Shown here: piece after piece, positions 24,991 through 27,334 of the stretch
Layout of the letters: every line of letters begins with the position of its first letter
Numbering within the stretch: the first letter of the stretch is position 1
Translations under genes and position numbers: made by a program
From: Longimicrobiales bacterium
GTDB lineage: Bacteria > Gemmatimonadota > Gemmatimonadetes > Longimicrobiales > Gaopeijiaceae
NCBI GenBank assembly: GCA_951813395.1
Contig: OX638356.1
Span: forward strand, 1,839,340 to 1,903,339
Length of the DNA: 64,000 nt
Direction of reading: 5' to 3'
The notes under the pieces: model-generated
Database searches by the model: none
The model's input: the letters and a program-made list of their open reading frames with translations, nothing else
Told to the model about the DNA's origin: nothing

Positions 24991-26757
24991 ATGAGCGTCG
25001 ACGGGTGGCTGACGCTTGCGGTCGTCTCGGTGACCGTGGTCGTGCTTGCCCGAGAACTGGTTTCGCCGGCCGTGACGTTCGGGGCCGCGGTCGTGGTCCT
25101 CATGGTGGCGGAGGTCGTGAGTCCGGGAGAGGCGTTTCAGGGGTTCTCGAATCCGGCTCCCATCACCGTCGCCGCGCTCTACATCCTGGCGCGGGCGGTG
25201 GAAAGGAGCGGGGCGCTGCAGCCTCTCGTGCGGGCGACCCTGGGCAAGGCCCGCGGCGTGCGCATGGCGCTTGCGCGGATCACGGTTCCCGTGGCCGCCT
25301 CGTCCGCGTTCCTCAACAACACTCCGATCATCGCCATGCTGGCCCCGCAGGTGGCGGAGTGGGCCGACCGGCGCGGAGACTCGGCGTCCCGCTACCTCAT
25401 GCCGCTCTCGTTCGCCGCCATCCTGGGGGGCATGACCACGCTGATCGGCACATCCACGAACATCGTGGTTTCGGGCCTGCTCCAGGCGGAAGGATACGAG
25501 CCCTTCTCGATGTTCGAACTGACGCGGCTCGCCCTCCCGATGGCGCTGATCGGCCTCGTGATCGCCGTCGTGCTCTCGCCCAGGCTGCTGCCGGACCGGC
25601 TGCCACCGCGCCAGGAGGCGCGATCCGGCGGCAGGACCTTCTCGGTCCGGATGGTTGTCGAGCCCGGAGGCCCCATCGACGGGCTGCCGGTCTCCGAAGC
25701 CCGGACGCGGTTCCCCGAGGGTGCGGCCATCGTGTACTTCGAGCGCGACGGCGAGGGAGCGGCGCAGATCTCGGGCCGGACGGTGCTCAGAGGCGGTGAT
25801 TATCTCACGCTGGTGGGAGGGATGGACACAGTGCTCGAGCTGCACGACGTGTCGGGTATCGCGTCGGCCCAGCAGCCGCACCTCCCCCACGAGGTGGGCA
25901 GCCCGCGGCACGCGTATTTCGAGGCGGTGATCGCACCGGAGTCCCGGCTCGTGGGCCGCTCGCTCGTGGACATCCAGTTTCTGGCGCGCTATCAGGGCAC
26001 GGTGGTGGCGATCCACCGGGCGGGAGAGCCGATCAAGGGCCACCTCGCGCGGGAACCCCTCCGCGCCGGCGATACGCTGCTGCTCATCTCGGACCGGGGC
26101 TTCGGCGAGCGCTGGCGCCACAGGAACGACTTCCTGCTCGTGCCCCGCCTTGGAGACACGGCCCCGCAGGAGGCAACGGGAAAGGCGGGAATCGTGGCCG
26201 GTGTCGGGGCAATGATCGTGCTGGGTGCCGCCCTGGGTCTCCTTCCCATCCTGCACCTCTCCCTTATCGGCGCGCTCGTGCTGATCGGCTCCGGCATTCT
26301 GACCACGAGCGAAGCCAAGGACTCGATCGATTTCGAGGTCATAATCGTGATCGGTGCCGCGTTCGGGCTTGCTGCAGCGGTCGACAATTCCGGCCTCGGC
26401 CAGTCGGCCGCCCACCTTGTCAACGATGTACTGGGCCGCTTCGGGCCACAGGGCGCGATGGCCGGCATCGTGATCAGCACCGTGGTGCTCAGCTCCTTCA
26501 TCACCAACAACGCGGCCGCCGCGCTCGTTCTTCCCATCGCGCTCTCGACGGCCTCCGACTTCGGGATCGACGCGCGAGCCGCGGCGGTCGCCGTCGCGCT
26601 CTCCGCTTCAGCGTCCTTCATGACGCCCGTGGCCTATCAGACCAACCTCATGGTCTACGGCCCGGGTGGGTATCACTTCGGGGACTACGCGCGGCTCGGC
26701 ACTCCGCTCACTCTCGTCGTGCTTGTGGTCCTCCTGATCTCCACGGCTCCCGCGTAG
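24991..26757 (+). CDS. SLC13/DASS-type permease with two TrkA-C domains
   Basis: 588 residues. An N-terminal set of transmembrane helices carries the SNT-like signature AFLNNTPIIAMLAP and the TLIGTSTNIVVSGLL motif. A cytoplasmic middle section (about residues 215-395) reads as two TrkA-C/RCK-C domains. The second half of the transporter contains SSFITNNAAAALVLPIALS and MTPVAYQTNLMVYGPGGY. The inverted duplicated NT motifs are the sodium/substrate sites of the DASS family, so it probably imports a carboxylate, sulfate or similar anion; TrkA-C modules suggest ligand regulation. Its 3' end overlaps the convergent selenoprotein gene by 50 bp. Confidence 0.9.
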   Translation: MSVDGWLTLAVVSVTVVVLARELVSPAVTFGAAVVVLMVAEVVSPGEAFQGFSNPAPITVAALYILARAVERSGALQPLVRATLGKARGVRMALARITVPVAASSAFLNNTPIIAMLAPQVAEWADRRGDSASRYLMPLSFAAILGGMTTLIGTSTNIVVSGLLQAEGYEPFSMFELTRLALPMALIGLVIAVVLSPRLLPDRLPPRQEARSGGRTFSVRMVVEPGGPIDGLPVSEARTRFPEGAAIVYFERDGEGAAQISGRTVLRGGDYLTLVGGMDTVLELHDVSGIASAQQPHLPHEVGSPRHAYFEAVIAPESRLVGRSLVDIQFLARYQGTVVAIHRAGEPIKGHLAREPLRAGDTLLLISDRGFGERWRHRNDFLLVPRLGDTAPQEATGKAGIVAGVGAMIVLGAALGLLPILHLSLIGALVLIGSGILTTSEAKDSIDFEVIIVIGAAFGLAAAVDNSGLGQSAAHLVNDVLGRFGPQGAMAGIVISTVVLSSFITNNAAAALVLPIALSTASDFGIDARAAAVAVALSASASFMTPVAYQTNLMVYGPGGYHFGDYARLGTPLTLVVLVVLLISTAPA

Positions 26758-27334
26758 CGGCGAGGGGTCGCGCCCGGGTCGCGGCCTGTGGTCGCGGACC
26801 GTCCCCGCCGTCCGAAGTCAGGTGCCGCAATACGTCTTTCATCGCCGCGGCGGCGAGCGCCTCCAACTCTTCCGGACTCCGGTTCTGCACGGGGTGGTTC
26901 ACCCAGACGATGGCGGGATCGAAGCCGAGAGTGCGCGCCTGATGCTCCGCTGCGTCGCGGAAGGCGGTCGTGGCCACGAGGAGACCGGGGACACCGCGAT
27001 CGTCGAGCTTCCTGATGTCATGCAGACCGCATGATACGCAGGAGCCTCAGTCGGCGAGCGCCACGACCACCGCGTCCGAACCCGCGGCGATCGCGTCCAG
27101 AGTCCGCGCGGCGGCGGGCTTGGCGTTGGTCGGCTTGGCGAAGCGCCCGGTGGCGATGTCCAGCGCGCGGAACCGGGTTTCGAGGTGGTCCAGGAATTCG
27201 TCCGAGCGGGTCTTGCCGATGTCGAACAGCGCCACGGTCCTGCCGGCCAGCGAGGCAGGGGGAGGGCGGCGGGGACGGGTGGCCGGGACGGATTCGGACG
27301 TGGGATCGTGCAACCGGGTTTCGGGGTTGTTCAT
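26708..27334 (-). CDS. UGSC family selenoprotein; in-frame TGA (27049-27047) read as selenocysteine 96
   Basis: 208 residues when the TGA is read through. Without that the frame splits into a 95-residue N-part and a C-part starting near 26977. The N-part (TVALFDIGKTRSDEFLDHLE; AAGSDAVVVALAD) and C-part (GLHDIRKLDDRGVPGLLVAT) are continuous in one frame and join through Sec-Gly-Ser-Cys-Val-Ser-Cys (U96, C99, C102). That tetrapeptide gives the UGSC family its name. The fdhF-like hairpin immediately downstream supports decoding. ATG 27334 overlaps the stop of the upstream thioredoxin-fold gene as ATGA. The last roughly 30 residues are low-complexity and overlap the SLC13 gene on the other strand. 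A thiol/selenol redox role is inferred; the family function is not established. Sec decoding needs selABCD elsewhere in the genome. Confidence 0.85.
27007..27046 (-). promoter_or_regulatory. Bacterial SECIS hairpin downstream of the UGA
   Basis: Reading the reverse strand from the base after TGA: lower stem TCCTG (27043-27039) with CAGGA (27014-27010), a small internal loop, a perfect six-pair upper stem TCATGC (27034-27029) with GCATGA (27023-27018), and the apical loop GGTCT (27028-27024). Exactly 18 nt separate TGA from the loop. From memory the E. coli fdhF SECIS has the same GGUCU loop at the same distance, which SelB recognises. The hairpin lies inside the coding sequence, so it is constrained by both functions. 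Confidence 0.85.

What the first reader, a model, noticed from the sequence alone, without database searches (positions are those of the whole stretch)
26708..27334. Selenoprotein of the UGSC type, invisible to a standard gene call
One frame carries a family-consistent sequence on both sides of an in-frame TGA, which falls exactly where Sec (or Cys) is expected before Gly-Ser-Cys. Reading TGA as a stop leaves two fragments and loses the active-site motif. I see U96, C99 and C102, a possible selenenylsulfide centre. The function of this family is not established, so a new redox chemistry is possible.
Basis: partly seen in the sequence, partly recalled or inferred. Interest (0 to 1): 0.85.

Follow-up and report, generated by a model that had tools for sequence, protein, structure and literature searches.

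The report
UGSC selenoprotein with obligate thioredoxin-fused partner
The gene really is read through a stop codon to insert selenocysteine and belongs to the already known UGSC family, but it turns out to be half of a conserved two-gene unit whose other half, a thioredoxin-fused protein absent from Pfam and NCBIfam, itself carries selenocysteine in some bacteria.

Summary
In detail: on the minus strand 26708-27334, one frame crosses an in-frame TGA (27047-27049) that encodes residue 96 of a UGSC-family protein (PF24696, E 1.2e-34, matched across the TGA). The genome, a single 4.09 Mb contig, holds tRNA-Sec, selA, selB and a Sec-containing selD. TGA stands at this codon in all 121 related sites examined, in several phyla. 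A bacterial SECIS hairpin follows it, with synonymous covariation between the Ser101 and His105 codons. So this is a genuine selenoprotein, but of a family described in 2007-2008; the gene by itself is a new member.

What is new lies next door. The gene overlaps (ATGA) an upstream gene that in relatives encodes one 480-residue protein: a thioredoxin-like domain (CxxC), a PG[C/U]GS motif and a domain X absent from Pfam and NCBIfam. UGSC and X occur together (48 of 49 UGSC genomes in the phylum sample) and adjacent. In a betaproteobacterial clade the PGCGS cysteine is an in-frame TGA followed by its own conserved hairpin, which decays where Sec reverts to Cys: apparently an undescribed selenoprotein. 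I propose a redox module in which the partner reduces the UGSC selenenylsulfide; substrate unknown. In the window the partner gene carries two single-base deletions.

The parts
26708..27334 (-). UGSC-family selenoprotein gene, 208 aa with Sec at residue 96
   Evidence: PF24696 120.3 bits over residues 8-173; 121/121 related sites with TGA
27047..27049 (-). in-frame TGA = Sec96 of the motif D-U-G-S-C-V-S-C
   Evidence: translation; alignments A1-A3
27018..27034 (-). bSECIS hairpin UCAUGC-GGUCU-GCAUGA, apical loop starting 18 nt after the UGA
   Evidence: MFE -19.9 kcal/mol, z -2.1 to -3.1; 98% of cells paired, covariation at columns 18/30 and 21/27
27331..28780 (-). upstream partner gene: thioredoxin-like domain + PGCGS motif + domain X; its stop overlaps the UGSC start (ATGA); reading frame interrupted by two 1-base deletions relative to relatives; start codon approximate
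   Evidence: three-frame translation, intact in relatives, deletions at 27558 and 28373
28715..28726 (-). CETC (CxxC) motif of the partner's thioredoxin-like domain
   Evidence: invariant Cys in 68/68 partners
28433..28435 (-). Cys codon of the partner's PGCGS motif; the equivalent codon is TGA (Sec) in 16 betaproteobacterial loci

Best explanation
The gene encodes a genuine UGSC-family selenoprotein. Ribosomes read UGA 27049-27047 as selenocysteine with SelB, tRNA-Sec and the bSECIS hairpin that begins 12 nt after the UGA (shown by comparative evidence, not by experiment). It is the small subunit of an obligate two-gene redox module. The second gene encodes a thioredoxin-like CxxC domain, a Cys/Sec motif PG[C/U]GS and an uncharacterised domain X (pairing shown; physical interaction inferred). 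Most likely mechanism (inferred, about 50%): Sec96, at the N-cap of a helix in a flavodoxin-like alpha/beta fold, attacks an oxidised or electrophilic substrate held by domain X. It then forms a selenenylsulfide with Cys99, and the partner's CxxC and Cys/Sec130 return it to the selenolate. In paralogous pairs whose X lacks the Trx domain, a separate thioredoxin would do this.
For: PF24696 across the TGA, E 1.2e-34. tRNA-Sec 79.7 bits against a cut-off of 47; selB 313 bits, selA 490 bits, selD 378 bits and itself with Sec, GAGUACK, in the same single-contig genome. 121/121 sites TGA in Gemmatimonadota, Alpha-, Beta- and Gammaproteobacteria, Myxococcota and Acidobacteriota. SECIS: UCA pairs with CAU and UCG with CAC or CAU, never UCA with CAC (Fisher p 3e-4 on 50 distinct stretches, not corrected for relatedness); where Cys102 becomes Trp (TGC to TGG) the facing Leu codon changes CTG to CTC and the pair is kept. 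Pairing: of 49 UGSC genomes among 394, 48 hold strong partner matches; the two discordant genomes (G012, G140) end at contig edges. ATGA overlap conserved in most loci. Stand-alone X genes also lie beside UGSC genes in either order. Partner C33, C36 and C/U130 invariant in 68/68. Sec swap at 130 with its own hairpin and one reversion with hairpin decay. UGSC model pLDDT 89, Sec between strand 88-94 and helix 97-112.
Against: No experiment; no known substrate; no geometry was measured in the models. In the window's own genome the partner gene carries two single-base deletions and no intact copy exists, so the module may be broken in this strain, or the assembly is wrong there. The hairpin after the partner's UGA is the predicted minimum-energy fold in only one of four sequences and none of the four clearly beats shuffles. 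NF041046 scores 115.8, below its cut-off of 125.
Confidence: 0.75

Rival explanations
1. The TGA is a real stop, a pseudogene or a sequencing error, and the protein is split.
For: Formally a stop by table 11; the neighbouring gene in the same assembly has two single-base deletions.
Against: TGA in 121/121 independent or related sites; codon-position bias on both sides; SECIS covariation; complete Sec machinery in the genome.
Confidence: 0.02
2. UGSC is not a redox-relay protein but uses Sec as a nucleophile to cleave a carbon-heteroatom bond of a small molecule, in the manner of GrdB/PrdB of glycine and proline reductase, with X as substrate-binding subunit.
For: Non-thioredoxin alpha/beta fold of UGSC; in one Gemmatimonadota genome (G262) the pair sits next to a TctC-type binding protein and an acyl-CoA synthetase-like gene, and TctC-like genes lie near 11 of 60 loci; up to five or more X copies per Burkholderiales genome suggest different substrates.
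Against: No match to PF07355 or to any other family with credible score; no conserved catabolic gene next to the Trx-fused version.
Confidence: 0.3
3. The pair is a metal- or metalloid-handling (for example organomercury or arsenic) detoxification system.
For: Other uncharacterised selenoproteins cluster in organometallic gene sets (PMC13188914).
Against: No metal-resistance genes recur beside the pair; no sequence similarity found to such families.
Confidence: 0.1

Closest known systems
UGSC family (PF24696; NF041046, 'UGSC family (seleno)protein')
   Same: Sequence family, Sec-Gly-Ser-Cys motif, Sec predominant (255 Sec against 21 Cys in the GOS data, PMC2398784).
   Different: Subfamily with C102, ATGA overlap and a Trx-fused partner; predicted fold is flavodoxin-like rather than the Trx-like fold supposed in 2008; below the NF041046 cut-off.
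GOS 'UGSC/Unknown_1' fusion (PMC2398784, Figure S1A)
   Same: A UGSC domain linked with a second conserved, uncharacterised domain; Unknown_1 may be domain X (figure and sequences not available here).
   Different: Here two overlapping genes, with X fused to thioredoxin; Sec in the partner is not mentioned in the passages read.
Thioredoxin (TIGR01068, PF00085, PF13098)
   Same: N-terminal ~100 residues of the partner with CxxC; weak sequence and structure matches.
   Different: All below cut-offs; fused to X; carries the extra PG[C/U]GS motif.
GrdB/PrdB selenoproteins of glycine and D-proline reductase (PF07355)
   Same: Sec with a downstream Cys in a non-thioredoxin protein working with partner subunits (recalled, a lead only).
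   Different: No match to PF07355; gene set differs.

Membership tests
UGSC family (PF24696) | score above the Pfam gathering cut-off of 25 bits over the whole model | tested here: met
   120.3 bits, model positions 2-171 of 172
UGSC family (NF041046 equivalog) | score above the curated cut-off of 125 bits | tested here: not met
   115.8 bits over model positions 2-147 of 147; same family by Pfam, but outside NCBI's equivalog cut-off
UGSC family (PF24696) | [U/C]-G-S-C motif | tested here: met
   U96-G-S-C99; 121/121 sites
bacterial selenoprotein | in-frame UGA conserved or aligned with Cys in homologues | tested here: met
bacterial selenoprotein | bSECIS hairpin just downstream of UGA with a conserved G in the apical loop | tested here: met
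   loop GGUCU, AGUCU, AGUUU or AGUGU, second base G in every site
bacterial selenoprotein | selA, selB, selC and selD in the genome | tested here: met
bacterial selenoprotein | selenium incorporated in vivo | not testable with these tools
   needs 75Se labelling or mass spectrometry
partner as a selenoprotein (PGUGS form, Betaproteobacteria) | TGA aligned with an otherwise invariant Cys | tested here: met
   16 loci TGA, 55 loci TGC/TGT
partner as a selenoprotein (PGUGS form, Betaproteobacteria) | conserved SECIS-like hairpin in Sec forms only | tested here: inconclusive
   codons 5, 7, 8, 9 and 11 after the UGA invariant in Sec forms and variable in Cys forms; one compensatory pair; decay in the revertant; but thermodynamic z-scores near 0
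partner as a selenoprotein (PGUGS form, Betaproteobacteria) | selB in the same genomes | tested here: met
   over the cut-off in 15 of 17 genomes, the other two with split or fragmentary matches
thioredoxin family (partner N-terminus) | score above TIGR01068 or PF00085 cut-offs | tested here: not met
   16.8-20.3 bits against 96.8; 11.5-11.8 against 23.5; works like, not filed as
GrdB/PrdB (PF07355) | match to PF07355 | tested here: not met
   no PF07355 match at E up to 10

The most novel reading that the evidence does not exclude
UGSC proteins and the undescribed domain X form an obligate two-component selenoenzyme family, with many paralogues per genome in Burkholderiales. In the thioredoxin-fused lineage both components can be selenoproteins, so that a Sec-to-Sec (or Cys-to-Sec) transfer between two proteins is part of a catalytic cycle not yet described.
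Probability: 0.45. Interest if true: 0.75.

Novelty: new variant of a known kind. Interest (0 to 1): 0.5.

Why it matters
[quoted passage not shown] An obligate partner, with a natural Sec/Cys swap marking a partner cysteine as probably catalytic, makes the function directly testable: co-purify the pair, trap the mixed selenenylsulfide, and look for the substrate. The partner family (domain X, with and without thioredoxin) has no Pfam or NCBIfam model. Its Sec form would be cut short by a standard gene call at UGA, leaving 100-odd residues, so it is easily missed in annotation.

Tried and rejected
Spurious-ORF or split-gene reading: rejected. Thioredoxin fold for UGSC: not supported; best structural matches are flavodoxin-like and related alpha/beta folds at low TM, and no solved structure is a credible sequence relative. 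Similarity of UGSC to GrdB: no PF07355 match. Fold of domain X: only weak PDB matches (class I fumarate hydratase E 4e-4 but TM 0.2; cyclic amide hydrolase fold lower), not accepted as an assignment; viral library gave essentially only thioredoxin- and glutaredoxin-like proteins. Conserved pathway neighbours: none beyond the pair itself. Literature search for the PGUGS selenoprotein: none; the 2026 review lists UGSC but shows no thioredoxin-X entry in the passages retrieved.

Full report
Observation. Translating 27334-26708 with TGA as Sec gives MNNPETRLHDPTSE...VVVALAD-U-GSCVSCGLHDIRKLDD... with U96, C99 and C102. By table 11 the same stretch falls into two ORFs of 114 and 89 codons. Pfam's UGSC model (PF24696) matches residues 8-173 at 120.3 bits, E 1.2e-34. 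NCBI's NF041046 'UGSC family (seleno)protein' matches at 115.8 bits, just under its equivalog cut-off of 125.

Machinery. The window lies in a single-contig 4.09 Mb genome (97.9% complete) with a tRNA-Sec (79.7 bits, cut-off 47; ARAGORN agrees, anticodon TCA), selB (313 bits), selA (490 bits) and selD (378 bits). The selD is itself a selenoprotein, GAGUACK. selA is present in all 23 genomes of the genus sampled, with or without UGSC. The named relatives place the genome in Gemmatimonadota; Candidatus Palauibacter is among them.

Conservation of the TGA. PF24696 matched 19 of 59 relatives and 49 of 394 genomes of the phylum, every match with exactly one TGA inside. A scan of named genomes whose patterns do not include the Sec codon returned 80 loci from Gemmatimonadota, Alpha-, Beta- and Gammaproteobacteria, Myxococcota and Acidobacteriota. 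A search that would have accepted Cys, Ser or Thr codons found TGA in 121 of 121 sites in 120 sources; a few are the same genome reached by two routes. Differences from relatives are richest in third codon positions on both sides of the TGA. Organism names such as 'Bordetella parapertussis' are titles of environmental MAGs and are probably mislabelled.

SECIS. Downstream of the UGA the RNA folds into UCAUGC-GGUCU-GCAUGA, 12 nt after the UGA, loop at +18 (MFE -19.9 kcal/mol; z -2.1 or -3.1 by stretch length). Across 58 sequences 98% of the pair cells are paired, against 48% or less with the partner slid. The third base of the Ser101 codon and that of the His105 codon covary: UCA with CAU (26), UCG with CAC (67) or CAU (18), never UCA with CAC. 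Both codon changes are synonymous, so protein constraint does not explain this. In the one C102W sequence of that set the pair C-G becomes G-C through TGC to TGG and CTG to CTC. The Fisher p of 3e-4 is not corrected for relatedness.

The partner. Upstream, overlapping by ATGA, lies a stretch that in the window is split over three frames but in relatives is one gene of about 480 residues: a thioredoxin-like domain with CxxC, a motif PGCGS, and a ~340-residue domain X. Neither Pfam nor NCBIfam has a model for it beyond sub-threshold thioredoxin hits, nor for stand-alone X. In the window two single-base deletions at 27558 and 28373 break it. These are the only net frameshifts inside genes across the ~16.6 kb aligned with the nearest relative L060, so random assembly error is not obviously the better explanation. 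One lies in a run of C, and the gene's non-synonymous to synonymous ratio is only slightly raised (0.60 against 0.40-0.47). No intact copy exists elsewhere in the genome. This is unresolved without reads.

Obligate pairing. In the same 394 genomes partner matches below 1e-70 occur in 48 of the 49 UGSC genomes plus one more. The two discordant cases are genes at contig ends. The ATGA overlap recurs in most loci of several phyla. A search of 300 Burkholderiales genomes found 35 with X, several with five or more copies, mostly without the Trx domain. The X loci that could be read lie on the same strand within about 210 bp of a UGSC gene, in the order X-UGSC or UGSC-X, and the UGSC codons read there are TGA; exceptions are a second X copy in G262 and matches at contig ends. 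No other gene family recurs around the pair. Adjacency kept through a change of order argues for a functional pair, not just inherited neighbourhood.

A second selenoprotein. In 16 betaproteobacterial loci the partner 'ends' at PG-TGA-GS. Read through, the TGA stands exactly at Cys130 (L060 numbering), a residue that is Cys or Sec in 68 of 68 full partners, together with the CxxC. In the Sec forms the codons CTC, CCC, GGG, GTG and GAG (codons 5, 7, 8, 9, 11 after the UGA) are invariant, although the Cys forms use other synonyms or residues there. They form a hairpin with one bulged base, and one sequence (L127) keeps a pair by changing both sides. Thermodynamic z-scores are near zero, and the hairpin is the best fold in only one of four sequences tried, so the case rests on conservation. 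The tree shows one Sec clade with one nested reversion to TGC (L077). In L077 the hairpin codons have decayed: 1 of 7 identical to its sister L094, against 187 of 285 downstream. selB is over the cut-off in 15 of 17 of the genomes, and split or fragmentary in the others. A full-text search for PGUGS found nothing, and the passages of the 2026 review retrieved show no matching family. I regard it as a probable undescribed selenoprotein.

Structure and mechanism. The UGSC model (pLDDT 89) is an alpha/beta Rossmann-like fold with Sec96 between strand 88-94 and helix 97-112. Its nearest solved structures are flavodoxin-like, at low TM, not thioredoxins as supposed in 2008 (PMC2398784). The partner model (pLDDT 88) has a clear thioredoxin domain; X has no convincing structural relative. 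The simplest mechanism is that Sec96 is the reactive group, Cys99 its resolving partner (UxxC spacing), and the partner's CxxC and Cys/Sec130 the reducing relay, with X holding the substrate. The pairing, the conserved residues and the Sec/Cys swap are shown; the relay, the contact between the proteins and the substrate are inferred. A bond-cleaving role like GrdB/PrdB is the main rival and is not excluded.

Comparison and novelty. The gene is a member of the UGSC family by Pfam, known from a deltaproteobacterial symbiont (2007, cited in PMC13188914) and from GOS data (PMC2398784), where it was one of the most abundant families and where a fusion to an 'Unknown_1' domain was noted. Whether Unknown_1 is X could not be checked. 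New here are the obligate pairing, the thioredoxin fusion and the Sec form of the partner. Hence 'new variant of a known kind'; for the UGSC gene alone the verdict would be 'new member of a known kind'.

Noticed in passing
window 27558 and 28373: Two single-base deletions in the partner gene relative to L060, the only net frameshifts inside genes across about 16.6 kb aligned; either a recent loss of the partner or local assembly error.
   Followed up: partly
window 26708-26757: The UGSC 3' end overlaps the 3' end of the convergent DASS/CitMHS-type transporter gene (24991-26757, + strand); the C-terminal tail of this copy is longer than in most relatives.
   Followed up: no
L072, L075, L076, L080, L083, L089, L090, L093, L094, L101, L109, L113, L119, L127, L128, L130: Betaproteobacterial partner genes with an in-frame TGA at the PGCGS cysteine: probable undescribed selenoprotein family.
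   Followed up: yes
L088:7436-8501: Two UGSC genes in tandem, both with TGA.
   Followed up: no
L133:6572-7981: Partner gene with an in-frame TAG just before the PGCGS motif; sequencing error, stop or something else.
   Followed up: no
L018:1501-2427: The genome's own selD is a Sec-containing selenophosphate synthetase (GAGUACK).
   Followed up: yes
L188-L194 and other Burkholderiales genomes: Stand-alone domain X paralogues, up to five or more per genome, beside UGSC genes; X has no Pfam or NCBIfam model.
   Followed up: partly
L170 (genome G262): UGSC with Trp instead of Cys102, beside stand-alone X, a TctC-type binding protein and an acyl-CoA synthetase-like gene: a catabolic-looking setting.
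   Followed up: partly
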